Shown here piece after piece: positions 11,733 through 31,411 of a stretch of DNA of 32,487 bases. Each line of letters opens with the position of its first letter. The stretch's first letter is position 1. Source of the DNA: Candidatus Nitrosocosmicus sp. (lineage in GTDB: Archaea; Thermoproteota; Nitrososphaeria; Nitrososphaerales; Nitrososphaeraceae); the NCBI GenBank assembly GCA_029194465.1, contig JARFXS010000031.1, positions 1 to 32,487 of the forward strand. The letters run 5' to 3'. The notes below the pieces were generated by a model, which searched no databases, was not told where the DNA came from, and worked only from the letters and a program-made list of their open reading frames with translations. The position numbers were made by a program, and so were the translations under genes.

Positions 11733-11761
11733 CCTAGGACATGATATGGATTAAGGTAATA

Positions 11762-13198
11762 TTGTACTTCAAAGAAGGCCTCACCTTTGATGACGTTCTC
11801 TTGGTGCCTAAGAAATCACCTATCGTGTCTCGATCACAAACCAGTCTAAAAACAAGACTTTCTTCAAATGTTAGTCTTAATGTCCCGATTATAAGTGCCA
11901 ACATGGATTCGGTGACCGAATCAAGAATGGCAATTGCATTAGCAAGAGAAGGGGGAATTGGAATAATACATAGATTCATGACTATCCAAGATCAAGTCGA
12001 ACAAGTTTTAAAGGTAAAGCGGAGCGAATCTGTTGTCATTGAGCAACCTTATACTATTGATCCTAGTAGTACTATAAAGGAAGCTAACTCTTTAATGTCA
12101 GAAAATGGGATTTCCGGATTGTTAGTAAAAGATTCCAATAATAAACTCTGTGGAATACTGACACGCAGAGATACTGTTTTTGAAAGAAACTTAAATGTAC
12201 TTGTCTCCGATCTGATGACTAAAGATGTAGTTTCTGCTAAAGTTGGTACTACTATAGATCAAGCAAAAGAAATTCTTCATAGGAATAAAATTGAGAAATT
12301 GCCCGTTATTAATGAAAACGGCGAGATTAGCGGACTAATTACTGGTAAAGATATATTGAAAATGGAAGAATATCCAAATGCTTCGAAAGATAAGAAAGGA
12401 AGGCTGCTTGTTGGCGCCGCGGTAGGAGTAAAGGGTGATTACCTCGAAAGAGCTGAATCGTTATTAAACAATGGAGCAGACGTAATTGTTGTAGATATAG
12501 CACATGGGCACAGTGACAACGCTATAAATACTGTAAAAATGATCAAGAAAGCGTTTCCTTCTTGTGAGCTTATAGCTGGAAATATTGCAACTGGAAGGGG
12601 AACCGAAGATCTAATAAAAGCAGGAGTTGATGCAGTTAAGGTAGGTGTTGGGTCAGGTTCAATTTGTATCACCAGGATTGTTACTGGTTCCGGGGTTCCC
12701 CAATTAACAGCCATTATTGATAGTGTTAAGATGGGAAAGAAATATGATATCCCAATTATTTCGGATGGTGGAACTAGAACTTCAGGCGATATGACCAAGG
12801 CCTTAGCTGCTGGTTCGTCATCAGTCATGATAGGTAGTATGTTTGGAGGAACTGATGAAAGCCCTGGCAAGACCTTAGTGAAAAATGGTAAAAAATATAA
12901 AATGTATCGCGGCATGGCATCTTTTTATGCTGCTTTGGGTCGAAGATATAGGGAAAACCCTGACTCCAGTTCTGATAATGAGGATTTAAACGACTATGTC
13001 CCAGAAGGAGTAGAAGCTATGGTGCCGTATAAAGGCAGCGTAATTGAAATTATAAGACAACTTGTGGGTGGGGTTAGATCCGGGCTAAGTTATTGTGGTG
13101 CCAATACAATCGGCGAAATGCAGGAAAACGCAGAATTCATAAAGATTACTCTAGCAGGTTATAAAGAGAGCCATCCACACGATGTAGACGTAATTTAA
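11762..13198 (+). CDS. guaB: IMP dehydrogenase
   Basis: Oxidises IMP to XMP with NAD+, the committed step to GMP. Length is about 478 aa from the TTG at 11762, which gives the usual family N-terminus (YFKEGLTFDDVLLVPKKS); an ATG at 11741 would add 7 residues but lies upstream of the predicted transcription start. The TIM barrel is interrupted by two CBS domains (about residues 88-200). The catalytic Cys is in GSGSICITR, with VDIAHGHS and ISDGGTRTSGD shaping the IMP site. The flap and active-site end carry RRYRENPDSS and PEGVEAMVPYKG. GuaA, which uses XMP, lies at 23333-24868, but not in the same transcript. Confidence 0.96.
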   Translation: MYFKEGLTFDDVLLVPKKSPIVSRSQTSLKTRLSSNVSLNVPIISANMDSVTESRMAIALAREGGIGIIHRFMTIQDQVEQVLKVKRSESVVIEQPYTIDPSSTIKEANSLMSENGISGLLVKDSNNKLCGILTRRDTVFERNLNVLVSDLMTKDVVSAKVGTTIDQAKEILHRNKIEKLPVINENGEISGLITGKDILKMEEYPNASKDKKGRLLVGAAVGVKGDYLERAESLLNNGADVIVVDIAHGHSDNAINTVKMIKKAFPSCELIAGNIATGRGTEDLIKAGVDAVKVGVGSGSICITRIVTGSGVPQLTAIIDSVKMGKKYDIPIISDGGTRTSGDMTKALAAGSSSVMIGSMFGGTDESPGKTLVKNGKKYKMYRGMASFYAALGRRYRENPDSSSDNEDLNDYVPEGVEAMVPYKGSVIEIIRQLVGGVRSGLSYCGANTIGEMQENAEFIKITLAGYKESHPHDVDVI

Positions 13199-13789: not shown

Positions 13790-14800
13790 TTATTTGTTAT
13801 TTCTTCTATCTATTGTATCCGTTATCTCTGCTCCCGTCCCAATAATGGTTACTGGTAATCCTGTCTCTGATTCAATATTACTCACAAATTCTTTTGCTTT
13901 GGAAGATAATTTAGAAAAATCTGTAATACCTTTAGATTCTGGGAAAACAATGTCTAATTTTGTCAATGCCACTTGTGTTGCACTATTAATTCGAATTGCT
14001 TTTTTTGCTAGGTCGAAATCAAATGGAGCGGACCTTCTTTGTCTTCCAGTTACGCTTCCGAATTCTAACCAATTTCTCTCCTTTGCTTGCTCACTACTTA
14101 TTTCTGATTCTAATGGTCCTTCTCCAACTCTGGTAACATATGACTTAAAAACAATTAAAACTTCATCTATTTTTTTTGGGCCCACACCTACATCAGAGCA
14201 AATGGCCGAAGCTGAAACATCTTTTGACGTTACAAAAGGGTACGTCCCATGAAATAGTGACAAAAAAGTACCCTGAGTCCCCTCAATTAACACCTTTTCC
14301 TTGTTGTCTATTGAATGGTTAATGGAATTACTAACATCTTCCAAAAATAAGGCAATTTCTGGAAAATCCTTTGCAAGTTTTAGACTTCTCAATGCCCGGT
14401 CTGCATTCGCGGGGCCAGTCCCAGTCCCAGTAGTACCGATCAATTTCTTAAGATGATCACTATTTTTATCCTTATCCTGATGAATTTTTTCTATAATACC
14501 ACATTGAAAATCCACAAAAGTCCTATCGGTAGTCCCGAATGTCTCTATTTCTTTCAATAATATGTTTGGTTCTATGAGGACACCTGCACCAATTAATAAC
14601 CTGGTATCCTTGTTTAATACCGCACTAGGTAACATTCTAACTTTGAACTCTTTATTGTTTTGAACAAAAGTATGACCTGCATTAGGGCCCGCACCCCCTC
14701 TGGCTGCTATGTCAAAATTATCCTTAATAGAAAGATATGCAACAATCTTCCCCTTCCCTTCATCTCCATAAAATCCACCTACAGTGACAATACAAGGCAT
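13790..14800 (-). CDS. purA: Adenylosuccinate synthetase
   Basis: Joins IMP and aspartate with GTP to give adenylosuccinate, the first step from IMP to AMP. The 336-aa length is the short archaeal form (bacterial enzymes are about 430). Motifs: GGFYGDEGKGK with catalytic Asp13, the NAGHT motif with His43, GTTGTGTGPANADR in the IMP loop, IEGTQGTFLSLFHGTYPFVTSKD, the aspartate-loop region GPLESE, and the guanine-binding LTKLDI near the C-terminus. ATG start with a TATA box 26 nt upstream. It is transcribed towards guaB, so the two IMP-consuming branches are convergent neighbours. Confidence 0.96.
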   Translation of the reverse strand: MPCIVTVGGFYGDEGKGKIVAYLSIKDNFDIAARGGAGPNAGHTFVQNNKEFKVRMLPSAVLNKDTRLLIGAGVLIEPNILLKEIETFGTTDRTFVDFQCGIIEKIHQDKDKNSDHLKKLIGTTGTGTGPANADRALRSLKLAKDFPEIALFLEDVSNSINHSIDNKEKVLIEGTQGTFLSLFHGTYPFVTSKDVSASAICSDVGVGPKKIDEVLIVFKSYVTRVGEGPLESEISSEQAKERNWLEFGSVTGRQRRSAPFDFDLAKKAIRINSATQVALTKLDIVFPESKGITDFSKLSSKAKEFVSNIESETGLPVTIIGTGAEITDTIDRRNNK

Positions 14801-14834: not shown

Positions 14835-15003
14835 CCTAGTAGTTCTAGTGTTCACTCTAAGTGTGATGGATTACAAAGATCTACCTAAATGTGAGCGAAA
14901 ATTGCTGATCCACAATGCTTGTTAATGTGATTTTTTTTGTACTGTTGAACTCAAGGTATGCGAATTGGAAAGAAAAAAATATTGTTGATTTTTTCAGACT
15001 CAT

Positions 15004-15481
15004 GTGGACAATGAGAATCCTGCATCATCATTTGTAGAAAACATTCTAATAATTTTGTCAAATTTGCCTACTGGTCTAAGATCTCCTATAATTAAAAAGT
15101 CGACTGAACGAATTCTTATCTTTCGATAAAGCAGAAAAAAGAGAAATTATTCAAAATGTTTTTGCTAATTATGGGAAAATTGAAAACCAGGCTTTATTGA
15201 ATATATTCGATTCTTGGTTGAATTCTTTGACAGAAATGAAAAGTGATGAAATTAGTGCCATATTCTATTCTTACTTGATTGAAATTTCTTTAAATCCATC
15301 TCTAATCAAAACTTTTAGCCACGATCTTGTGATATCTATGACAGATAGATTGACTAGTTTTCCAACCTACAAGAAAACAAAACTACTTGACTGTTTTTTT
15401 GAATCGATCATTAATACCCCCAATCCTAAATTGATTCTAAATGTAATCCCACATACACTGCTGGAGACGATGTATGAATAA
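15004..15481 (+). pseudogene. Frameshifted uncharacterised helical protein
   Basis: A GTG at 15004 opens a frame (VDNENPASSFVENILIILSN, then LPTGLRSPIIKKSTERIL). Near 15111-15121 one extra base is needed to continue in the next frame (SFDKAEKREIIQNVFANYGK and onward), which is open to 15481 and ends PHTLLETMYE. Total length is 159 codons plus one base. The downstream frame has no ATG/GTG/TTG start before 15197, and both halves look like one all-helical protein, so I read it as a single gene with a 1-nt indel. This may be a true mutation or a sequence error. The product is soluble and unrecognised. Confidence 0.55.
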
Positions 15482-15498: not shown

Positions 15499-15744
15499 TT
15501 ATTTATTCTCCGGTTTTTTTTCTATTTCCCCTATTGTTTTATCAAAAAATCCTTTCTCATATTTTCTTAAGGCTTTTCTATGTTCGGGCAAGGACATATC
15601 TAATCTCATCTCATTCATGACCATGACTGCATAAGTTGTCCATTCTTTCCAACATTCAGGACAAGATGGGTATTTCTGTGAAATTTCATCTTCAACATCA
15701 CTTTCATTAAATGATTTATTACATCTTAGACATGTTTTTGACAT
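15499..15744 (-). CDS. YggX-like Fe(2+)-trafficking protein with two CxxC motifs
   Basis: An 81-aa protein. The N-terminal part has CLRC (Cys5, Cys8) and CPEC (Cys28, Cys31), a likely zinc-ribbon or other metal site. The C-terminal part (CWKEWTTYAVMVMNEMRLDM, then SLPEHRKALRKYEKGFF) matches the YggX/Fe(2+)-trafficking pattern, in which a Trp-x-x-Trp helix leads to I/M-N-E-x-x-L and a C-terminal helix with an Arg and a Phe-Phe. Bacterial YggX has a single N-terminal Cys and supports Fe-S cluster repair under oxidative stress; CxxC-bearing versions occur in other lineages. Its role here as an iron or Fe-S protection factor is inferred. It stands alone on the minus strand. Confidence 0.7.
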   Translation of the reverse strand: MSKTCLRCNKSFNESDVEDEISQKYPSCPECWKEWTTYAVMVMNEMRLDMSLPEHRKALRKYEKGFFDKTIGEIEKKPENK

Positions 15745-23332: not shown

Positions 23333-24868
23333 CTATTGCGGTTCAATTGTGGAAGGTGGCTTGCTTGATATAGCATATGTTACCCAAGTCACATTTTCGA
23401 TTTCATTGGTTATCTTGGAACTAATCTTTTCTAAAGTGGAGTATGGCAATCTTGACCAATCGGCTGTCATCGCATCAATTGATTCAACAACTCTTATTGA
23501 GACAATATGTCCAAAAATCCTTTCATCCCCTAAAATTCCAACTGCCTTATCATCTCCCACTATAGCGAATGCTTGCCATACTTTGTCGTACAAGTTGTCT
23601 TCAACGAGTACTTCTTCTACTATGTGGCTTGCCTTCCTAACCACATTTATCTTCTCCTGACTAGTTTCACCGACAATTCGCACCGCTAAACCTGGTCCCG
23701 GAAAGGGGTGTCTTTTAAGCAAGTCCGGGGGTACACCCATTATTTTTGCCACATTTCGCACCTCGTCCTTATACAAATATCTCAATGGTTCTAAAATTTT
23801 CAAATGGAGCCATTCGGGAAGTCCACCTACGTTATGATGAGTTTTTATTACTGTAGCAGGACCGCCCGAGACTCCGCTCTCTATTACATCCGGGTACAAA
23901 GTTCCTTGGGCTAACCACTGAAATGGTCCTTCATTTTCGGCGAATTCTGTAAATACTCTTGCAAATTCCTCTCCTACTTTTTTTCTTTTTTGTTCCGGAT
24001 CTTTTAATCCTTCAAGACCTTTCAAGAATCTCTTCCTTGCATCTACGATTCTGAGAGGTATCCTTAATTTTTCTTTGAATATCTCTTCTACTTTTTCCCT
24101 TTCATTCTCTCTCAATAATCCATTATCTACAAAAACGCAAGTCAAATTATCCTTGATGGCCCTATGTATGAGAATGGCACAAGTGGTAGAATCGATACCT
24201 CCACTCACGGCGCACAGAACCTTTTCATTTTTAACCTTCATTTGTATATCGTTAATGCTTGTTTCAATAAAGTTTGACATAACCCATTCAGGATTTGCCT
24301 TGCTAATCTCATTAGCGAAATTGAATAATACTTTATCTCCCTTTTCAGTATGAGCTACTTCTGGATGAAACTGTAATCCAAAAATCTTTTTGTCATTGTT
24401 ACCTATTGCTGCTGAAAATGAATTACCTGTTTTACCCAACACTTCAAATCCTTTAGGGAGTACTTCTGCGGCATCACTATGACTCATCCAACATTTCAGA
24501 CCATCTGAACCTATGTCTTTAAATAAATTGGTCTTGTCCATTATTGTTAGCAATGCATTTCCATATTCTCTGTTCAAAACTCTCTTTATCTTGCCCTCAA
24601 AGTGATCAACAATGATCTGATGTCCATAACAAATGCCCAAAATAGGAACACCTAATTCAAATACTTCATAGTCTGGTTTAGGGGAATTTTTGCTGTATAC
24701 ACTGGCAGGCCCACCTGAAAAAATTATTCCCTTTGGTTCTAGATCTTTTATTTTTTCGGCCGAAGTATTGTAAGGAACTAGTTCGCAGTAGATATTTAAT
24801 TCCCGTATCCTCCTACATATTAAATGGCTGTACTGAGATCCAAAATCCAATACTACTATTTTGTCCAT
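23333..24868 (-). CDS. guaA: GMP synthase (glutamine-hydrolysing), single chain
   Basis: Converts XMP to GMP with ATP and glutamine. The 511-aa protein fuses both domains. Residues 1-190 are the class I glutamine amidotransferase with Cys80 (GICYGHQ), His168 and Glu170 (QFHPEV). The ATP-pyrophosphatase P-loop is SGGIDS at 222-227. The C-terminal dimerisation domain has RHPFPGPGLAVRIVGE and a Pro-rich end. Many archaea split the two domains into separate genes; this one does not. The ATG overlaps the stop of the broken upstream gene (TAATG), so guaA is in that gene's transcript. Confidence 0.97.
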   Translation of the reverse strand: MDKIVVLDFGSQYSHLICRRIRELNIYCELVPYNTSAEKIKDLEPKGIIFSGGPASVYSKNSPKPDYEVFELGVPILGICYGHQIIVDHFEGKIKRVLNREYGNALLTIMDKTNLFKDIGSDGLKCWMSHSDAAEVLPKGFEVLGKTGNSFSAAIGNNDKKIFGLQFHPEVAHTEKGDKVLFNFANEISKANPEWVMSNFIETSINDIQMKVKNEKVLCAVSGGIDSTTCAILIHRAIKDNLTCVFVDNGLLRENEREKVEEIFKEKLRIPLRIVDARKRFLKGLEGLKDPEQKRKKVGEEFARVFTEFAENEGPFQWLAQGTLYPDVIESGVSGGPATVIKTHHNVGGLPEWLHLKILEPLRYLYKDEVRNVAKIMGVPPDLLKRHPFPGPGLAVRIVGETSQEKINVVRKASHIVEEVLVEDNLYDKVWQAFAIVGDDKAVGILGDERIFGHIVSIRVVESIDAMTADWSRLPYSTLEKISSKITNEIENVTWVTYAISSKPPSTIEPQ

Positions 24869-26564: not shown

Positions 26565-27344
26565 ATGGATAAATACCACTCTTTCGCTAACCGAATTAGC
26601 AAAATTAGAAGAAAGAAAAGCAGCAATATTGTTTTGGCGATAGACCCAACATGCAATGTAGAAAACTTATTTGACTACGTATGCCATGTTATTGATCAAC
26701 TACATGATTATGTTTGTGCTATTAAGCTAAATTTCCATGTAATATTGCCCTTGTCTAAAACTGAACTAAAGAAAATTACACAAATTGCTCATGAAGGCAA
26801 TCTCCAGGTTATAGCAGATATTAAATTAAATGATATTTTTGATACTAATAAGGTTACCATAAAATATCTTTCGTCCCTAGGATTCGATTCTGTTATTGTA
26901 AATCCTTTTATAGGTAAAACAAGTCTTAAATCAACAGTTGATTACGCTCATTCATTGGATTTTGGAGTAATATCTCTTGTATACATGAGTCATGCTGATG
27001 CAGTAGAAGGGTACGGAGCCTCGTTAGCAACTCCAACCGGTATTGACAAATCGGAAAATTTAAAGCCTGTCTATCGCATATTTTATGAAAATTCCCAGTC
27101 GGCAGGTGTAGATGGTGTAGTAGTTGGAGGAAATAGATTAGATATTTTAAAGGAATTGCGAGATAAAGGAGATGAATGCCTTCCTATTTACTCCCCGGGT
27201 ATTATTACACAGGGAGGAGATATCAAAATGGCACTTGAATCTGGTTCTACCTATTTAATTATAGGCAGAGCGATAATTAATTCCGATTCACCATTAAACA
27301 CGGTAAAGGACATTTATGATTTAGTAAAAGTCCTTGAGTATTAG
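26565..27344 (+). CDS. pyrF: Orotidine 5'-phosphate decarboxylase
   Basis: Decarboxylates OMP to UMP, the last step of de novo UMP synthesis. The 259-aa TIM-barrel protein has VLAIDPT with Asp27, CAIKLNFHVI with Lys54, the catalytic DIKLND array (Asp85, Lys87, Asp90), SPGIITQGGD and LIIGRAI at the phosphate site. The DxKxxD motif and length about 260 fit the longer archaeal/bacterial type. The ATG sits 1 nt after the stop of the upstream unknown gene. No other pyr genes are in the window. Confidence 0.93.
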   Translation: MDKYHSFANRISKIRRKKSSNIVLAIDPTCNVENLFDYVCHVIDQLHDYVCAIKLNFHVILPLSKTELKKITQIAHEGNLQVIADIKLNDIFDTNKVTIKYLSSLGFDSVIVNPFIGKTSLKSTVDYAHSLDFGVISLVYMSHADAVEGYGASLATPTGIDKSENLKPVYRIFYENSQSAGVDGVVVGGNRLDILKELRDKGDECLPIYSPGIITQGGDIKMALESGSTYLIIGRAIINSDSPLNTVKDIYDLVKVLEY

Positions 27345-31313: not shown

Positions 31314-31323
31314 TATTCTTAAG

Positions 31324-31411
31324 AGGTGGGGAAGGGATTCGAACCCTTATATATTCGCTATCTGTTTCTGTGAGTCTGCAGGCGAACGCATGGCCGCTCT
31401 GCCACCCCACC
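31324..31411 (-). tRNA. tRNA-Cys (GCA) with a 16-nt intron
   Basis: The mature 72-nt tRNA folds fully: acceptor GGTGGGG/CCCCACC, D-arm GCA..TGC, anticodon stem TTCGC/GCGAA with loop CTGCAGA giving anticodon GCA, variable loop TATAT, T-arm AAGGG/CCCTT with TTCGAAT, and T73, the discriminator typical of tRNA-Cys. No 3' CCA is encoded. A 16-nt insert sits at 31360-31375, between positions 37 and 38, the canonical intron place. A TATA box at 31441-31448 lies about 33 nt upstream. Confidence 0.95.
31360..31375 (-). other. tRNA-Cys intron (position 37/38)
   Basis: The 16 nt ACTCACAGAAACAGAT break the anticodon loop after G37; removing them restores a 5-bp anticodon stem and 7-nt loop. The splice junctions would be cut by the archaeal tRNA-splicing endonuclease. 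Exact ends may slip by a nucleotide. Confidence 0.85.

What the first reader, a model, noticed from the sequence alone, without database searches (positions are those of the whole stretch)
15499..15744. YggX-like iron-trafficking protein with two CxxC pairs in an archaeon
The C-terminal half follows the YggX pattern (Trp-x-x-Trp...Asn-Glu-x-x-Leu...Arg...Phe-Phe), whereas bacterial YggX has one Cys. Four Cys in CxxC pairs could make a zinc ribbon or an iron site. YggX-type proteins are mostly known from bacteria, so an archaeal form linked to a metal ribbon is worth attention.
Basis: partly seen in the sequence, partly recalled or inferred. Interest (0 to 1): 0.5.

Follow-up and report, generated by a model that had tools for sequence, protein, structure and literature searches.

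The report
Zinc-finger version of YggX in archaea
A small protein found in nearly all ammonia-oxidising archaea examined is a real relative of the bacterial iron and oxidative-stress protein YggX, but it keeps a four-cysteine metal site of which the bacterial form retains only one cysteine.

Summary
Window 15499-15744 (minus strand) encodes an 81-residue protein with C5xxC8 and C28xxC31. It passes the Pfam Iron_traffic (YggX) cut-off (30.3 bits against 27). The match does not depend on the cysteines. The AlphaFold model's best PDB matches are solved YggX structures, aligned over model residues 1-73. It is not isolated: 187 of 250 genomes of the class have it, including 172 of the 175 with archaeal amoA. 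All four cysteines are invariant in 39 of 39 aligned members. A related family without detected amoA (f7) carries four-cysteine proteins that match YggX almost end to end, bridging the two groups. The metal site is most likely a treble clef rather than a ribbon. A 2016 paper already classed bacterial YggX as a treble clef whose solved members lack zinc. My reading is an intact, probably zinc-binding treble-clef YggX, in which the cysteine reported critical in bacterial YggX is one of four ligands. Function (iron handling or Fe-S protection) is inferred from YggX and untested. New variant of a known kind; moderate interest.

The parts
15499..15744 (-). YggX-like protein, 81 aa, four-cysteine form
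   Evidence: ORF; Pfam Iron_traffic 30.3 bits, cut-off 27; fold
15721..15732 (-). First CxxC pair, C5 and C8 (hairpin knuckle); C5 aligns with C7 of E. coli YggX
   Evidence: Both invariant in 39 of 39; alignment with E. coli
15652..15663 (-). Second CxxC pair, C28 and C31, at the start of the first helix; bacterial YggX has Ser35 and mostly Ala38 here
   Evidence: Both invariant in 39 of 39
15610..15651 (-). Helix segment W32-x2-W35 ... N44-E45, shared with bacterial YggX
15576..15582 (-). H55-R56 at the start of the second helix (helix 53-67 of the model)
   Evidence: Invariant in 39 of 39; helix 53-67

Best explanation
This is the archaeal, metal-binding form of YggX. Shown by computation: the ORF is coding, it is homologous to YggX, it is predicted to share the fold end to end, and four cysteines are invariant across ammonia-oxidising archaea. 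Inferred: the four thiolates (C5 and C8 on the hairpin knuckle; C28 and C31 at the helix start) bind one metal ion, most likely a structural Zn2+, forming a treble clef that pins the N-terminal hairpin onto the helix. The helix face with W32, W35, N44 and E45, which bacteria and archaea share, is then the working surface, probably binding an iron-sulphur protein or another client and limiting damage by reactive oxygen or nitrogen species in aerobic ammonia oxidisers. Bacterial YggX would be the same scaffold with one cysteine of the metal site left. Confidence: about 0.95 for YggX homology, about 0.75 for a treble clef that binds zinc, about 0.4 for a YggX-like protective or iron-handling role.
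For: Family match over the Pfam cut-off that does not depend on Cys. Four-Cys f7 proteins match YggX over nearly their full length (59.8 and 50.4 bits; tblastn 2e-6; profile E 1.3e-14) and match the archaeal set (8.7e-15). The three best Foldseek hits are YggX, and all four chains with Z of 2 or more in the VIA second look are YggX, Z 6.6-8.8, aligned over model residues 1-73. Four Cys invariant in 39 of 39. Near-universal with amoA, 172 of 175. YggX classed as a treble clef in print (PMC4999995, abstract and passages). A critical N-terminal Cys in YggX is reported (PMC11078426, passages).
Against: No metal was seen: AlphaFold models no ions, and I could not measure Cys geometry. Model confidence is moderate (pLDDT 77.4, pTM 0.62). 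Below the NCBIfam equivalog cut-off (34.5 of 74). In the phylum search 48 of the 73 matching genomes reach the Pfam cut-off. The neighbouring genes give no sign of iron or Fe-S metabolism. The Cys reported critical in bacterial YggX would here be tied up as a ligand, so the bacterial mechanism may not carry over.
Confidence: 0.7

Rival explanations
1. The four cysteines bind iron rather than zinc (a rubredoxin-like Fe(Cys)4 or a labile Fe2+ site), so the protein is itself an iron carrier or redox sensor.
For: The family is named for Fe(II) trafficking; two CxxC pairs can bind either metal. Ten of 121 pooled distinct sequences have a C-terminal tail with three or more His, as metal-handling proteins may have.
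Against: The treble clef fold mostly holds structural zinc (PMC4999995, abstract). The His tails are confined to some members and absent in the window.
Confidence: 0.17
2. The protein shares the YggX scaffold but does another job, such as binding nucleic acid or serving as a structural adaptor; the iron label does not carry over.
For: The gene keeps company with purA and other nucleotide-metabolism genes rather than iron genes. Treble clefs serve many functions (PMC4999995, abstract). Score below the YggX equivalog.
Against: The helix residues shared with YggX are the most conserved part, which suggests a shared surface. Gene order alone says little about function.
Confidence: 0.3
3. The resemblance to YggX is chance or comes from the zinc-finger cysteines.
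For: The Pfam score is only just over the cut-off (30.3 against 27).
Against: Masking every Cys leaves the match intact against 1000 shuffles; the f7 bridge; fold matches.
Confidence: 0.02

Closest known systems
YggX / Iron_traffic (PF04362; NCBIfam PRK05408 'oxidative damage protection protein')
   Same: Predicted fold over residues 1-73, the W-x2-W ... N-E-x2-L helix, the first Cys (C5 on C7), small single-domain size
   Different: Four Cys in place of one; a shorter linker between the two CxxC pairs, without the PGELG segment of bacterial YggX; below the NCBIfam equivalog cut-off
   Same: Two CxxC pairs and the same helix
   Different: Keep the longer linker with a G-x2-G segment as in bacterial YggX and match Iron_traffic over nearly full length; no AmoA detected in those genomes
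Treble clef zinc fingers as a fold group (PMC4999995, abstract and passages)
   Same: Cys knuckle at the hairpin and a second CxxC at the helix start, as in my model
   Different: Metal not shown; the paper places YggX itself there as a member whose solved structures lack zinc
HVO_0758 zinc finger family (PF23137, NF041912)
   Same: Weak similarity over residues 4-36, the CxxC region
   Different: 16.8 of 27 and 16.5 of 70 bits, below both cut-offs; does not cover the YggX helix

Membership tests
YggX / Iron_traffic (PF04362) | Score over the Pfam gathering cut-off | tested here: met
   30.3 against 27 bits, residues 30-70; in the phylum 48 of 73 matching genomes exceed it
YggX / Iron_traffic (PF04362) | YggX fold | tested here: met
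   Predicted model only: YggX structures are the three best Foldseek hits and the only four VIA rows
YggX / Iron_traffic (PF04362) | N-terminal Cys (C7) reported as critical | tested here: met
   C5 aligns with C7; the critical role comes from PMC11078426 passages
YggX / Iron_traffic (PF04362) | Fe(II) handling or protection from oxidative damage | not testable with these tools
   Needs biochemistry or complementation
NCBIfam YggX equivalog (NF003817, PRK05408) | Score over the curated cut-off of 74 bits | tested here: not met
   34.5 bits; the f7 protein reaches 65.7. So it is filed as a divergent member of the Pfam family, not as an equivalog
Treble clef zinc finger | Four metal ligands, knuckle plus helix start | tested here: met
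   C5, C8, C28, C31 invariant in 39 of 39; second pair at the start of helix 29-46; judged from secondary structure, coordinates not available
Treble clef zinc finger | Bound zinc | not testable with these tools
   Needs metal analysis
HVO_0758 zinc finger | Score over the curated cut-off | tested here: not met
   16.8 against 27 bits; 16.5 against 70

The most novel reading that the evidence does not exclude
The four-cysteine form is the ancestral YggX. Its tetrathiolate site is where the family binds metal in the cell, possibly Fe(II), and proteobacterial YggX is a metal-less derivative in which one former ligand (C7) became a reactive thiol. Comparing the two would then explain what YggX does with iron, and would identify a core stress protein of ammonia-oxidising archaea.
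Probability: 0.12. Interest if true: 0.65.

Novelty: new variant of a known kind. Interest (0 to 1): 0.42.

Why it matters
It is a near-universal gene of ammonia-oxidising archaea (172 of 175 amoA-positive genomes) with a testable tie to iron and oxidative stress. It also shows the YggX scaffold with its presumed metal site intact, which gives a concrete experiment on how YggX relates to iron. If the site is only structural zinc, the result is a tidy evolutionary footnote to the published treble-clef assignment.

Tried and rejected
Rejected: a zinc ribbon added to YggX (the Cys are in the YggX fold itself); a chance match; an operon with purA (a convergent gene lies between).

Led nowhere: bacterial four-Cys relatives could not be reached. 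tblastn of the f7 protein in plasmids returned YggX-type hits plus weak unrelated ones. Three scans of viral contigs for a family member found none. A looser DNA pattern gave 76 contigs, with no four-Cys YggX among the ORFs under 250 aa that I screened. Phage searches gave only weak, unconfirmed hits for the window protein (E 1 or above) and none for the second f7 protein. So whether the four-Cys form is common in bacteria, and which state is ancestral, is open; no tree was built, because 80 residues and this sampling would not settle it. Papers: searches pairing yggx with archaea, ammonia-oxidizing or Thaumarchaeota, 'iron trafficking protein' with Nitrososphaera, 'iron traffic' with Thaumarchaeota, 'oxidative damage protection protein' with archaea, and COG2924 gave listings in which I saw no paper that describes the archaeal protein. 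Only open-licence PMC text is searched, and supplements could not be read. Promoter and terminator scan: nothing (it covers bacterial promoters only). PHROGs: weak hits only.

Limits of counts: of the 63 genomes without a YggX hit, 43 were not listed by name. 121 distinct sequences were pooled: 119 fit C2-C2, and the two that do not are E. coli YggX and a fragment that my script cut (L149). The pool includes E. coli and at least one weak, possibly unrelated hit (L155). Alignment A1 used 39 rows: the window and 38 of the 41 picked from L031-L110, leaving out the identical L031 and two rows with doubtful starts (L049, L078). The handle lists were typed. Names such as purA, guaA, guaB and pyrF are my reading of the sequences, not a family search.

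Full report
What is there. The ORF at 15499-15744, minus strand, starts with ATG and gives 81 residues with C5xxC8 and C28xxC31. The genome's closest named relatives are Candidatus Nitrosocosmicus, soil ammonia-oxidising archaea, and it carries one copy. Codon-position differences against five relatives show a coding gene under purifying selection.

Is it YggX? Pfam Iron_traffic scores 30.3 bits (cut-off 27) over residues 30-70, and NCBIfam's YggX equivalog 34.5 bits against 74. By sequence the four best PDB matches are YggX structures, E 5.6e-4 to 4.9e-3. An HMM of 39 archaeal members finds 9 of 9 bacterial YggX (14.5-32.1 bits; best of 1000 shuffles 8.9), and does so equally with all Cys masked (14.3-33.3; best shuffle 8.5). 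The reverse search finds 39 of 39 archaeal members (24.3 bits or more; best shuffle 7.8). So the match does not come from the cysteines.

The bridge. A family of the same order in which no amoA was detected (f7; 4 genomes) has proteins with CxxC ... CxxC (read in full in L148, L150 and L151). They match Iron_traffic over nearly their whole length, at 59.8 and 50.4 bits. By tblastn one matches E. coli YggX at 2e-6 over residues 5-72. Profile comparison gives f7 to YggX E 1.3e-14 over 71 columns, archaeal set to f7 8.7e-15 over 71 columns, and archaeal set to YggX 5.9e-9 over 41 columns. In the alignment C5 falls on C7 of E. coli YggX; the other three Cys positions hold other residues in bacteria, the third being an invariant Ser35 in 9 of 9.

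Fold. AlphaFold from 39 aligned sequences gives pLDDT 77.4 and pTM 0.62: strands 2-4 and 11-13 around the first CxxC, helix 29-46 starting at the second, helix 53-67; residues 72-81 have low confidence. Foldseek's three best PDB hits are YggX from Pseudomonas, Burkholderia and E. coli (E 9.4e-3 to 3.1e-2). In the VIA second look 29 chains were aligned, and the only four with Z of 2 or more are YggX (Z 6.6-8.8). Foldseek had no hit at E 0.001 or better, so the fold match alone would be suggestive; it counts because it agrees with the sequence match. The arrangement is that of a treble clef. Kaur and Subramanian 2016 (PMC4999995; abstract and passages seen) list YggX among newly recognised treble clefs whose structurally characterised homologues lack zinc. 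Their supplementary description of YggX was not readable here, so they may already mention Cys-bearing relatives.

Distribution. 187 of 250 genomes of the class have the protein, and 172 of 175 genomes with archaeal AmoA do. Of the 15 with the protein but no AmoA hit, 4 are f7 and the other 11 belong to families in which AmoA is otherwise found; 60 of 250 have neither. In the phylum 73 of 398 match PF04362, all within the window's order. The four Cys are invariant in 39 of 39 aligned members. This fits a core gene of ammonia-oxidising archaea, but any gene fixed in that clade would show the same pattern, so the link to ammonia oxidation is correlation only.

Neighbourhood. A purA-like gene lies downstream on the same strand in 74 of 81 loci, usually about 500 bases away; of the seven without it, five hold under 800 bases downstream and two hold about 1,700. 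In between lies a convergent gene of about 160 residues without a significant Pfam match, so gene order is conserved without an operon. Nothing near points to iron.

Mechanism. Shown by computation: homology, predicted fold, conservation. Inferred: a single metal ion, most likely zinc, on the four thiolates; a working surface on the WxxW-NE helix; a role in protecting Fe-S proteins or handling iron, by analogy with YggX, for which a critical N-terminal Cys is reported (PMC11078426, passages seen, citing Gralnick and Downs 2003, which I did not see). A puzzle follows: the Cys critical in bacterial YggX would here be a metal ligand. Either the shared function lies on the helix and not in a free thiol, or the metal site itself is the ancestral working part.

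Verdict. A real, well-conserved four-cysteine variant of a known family. Interest 0.42.

Noticed in passing
window about 14995-15481, + strand: The gene between the yggX-like gene and purA, intact at about 160 residues in near relatives (L031), is split between two frames in the window by an apparent frameshift near 15090-15110: a real mutation or an assembly error.
   Followed up: partly
L016, L018, L020, L041-L046, L048, end of the yggX-like gene: Ten distinct members, nine of them in loci titled or grouped with Nitrososphaera-type archaea, end in tails with three or more His in the last 14 residues, absent in the window; possibly a second metal-binding element.
   Followed up: partly
L157:1498-1872 and L158:1498-1872: Vibrio vulnificus and V. 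parahaemolyticus second replicons carry a longer, diverged YggX-like protein with a C-terminal extension (L157: 124 aa), next to a DUF1064 gene.
   Followed up: no
L074:4717-4945, - strand: In Nitrosopumilaceae-type loci a small protein with two CxxC pairs is divergent from the yggX-like gene (its cluster spans 41 loci); no Pfam match over the cut-off.
   Followed up: partly
window 31323-31411, - strand: A tRNA gene (Rfam 50.1 bits) for which ARAGORN gives no clear isotype and a four-base anticodon; perhaps an intron or long variable arm.
   Followed up: no
window 11741-13198, 13790-14800, 23333-24868, 26565-27344: By my reading of the sequences the window holds IMP dehydrogenase, adenylosuccinate synthetase, GMP synthetase and OMP decarboxylase genes: a nucleotide-synthesis neighbourhood (names not tested by a family search).
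   Followed up: no
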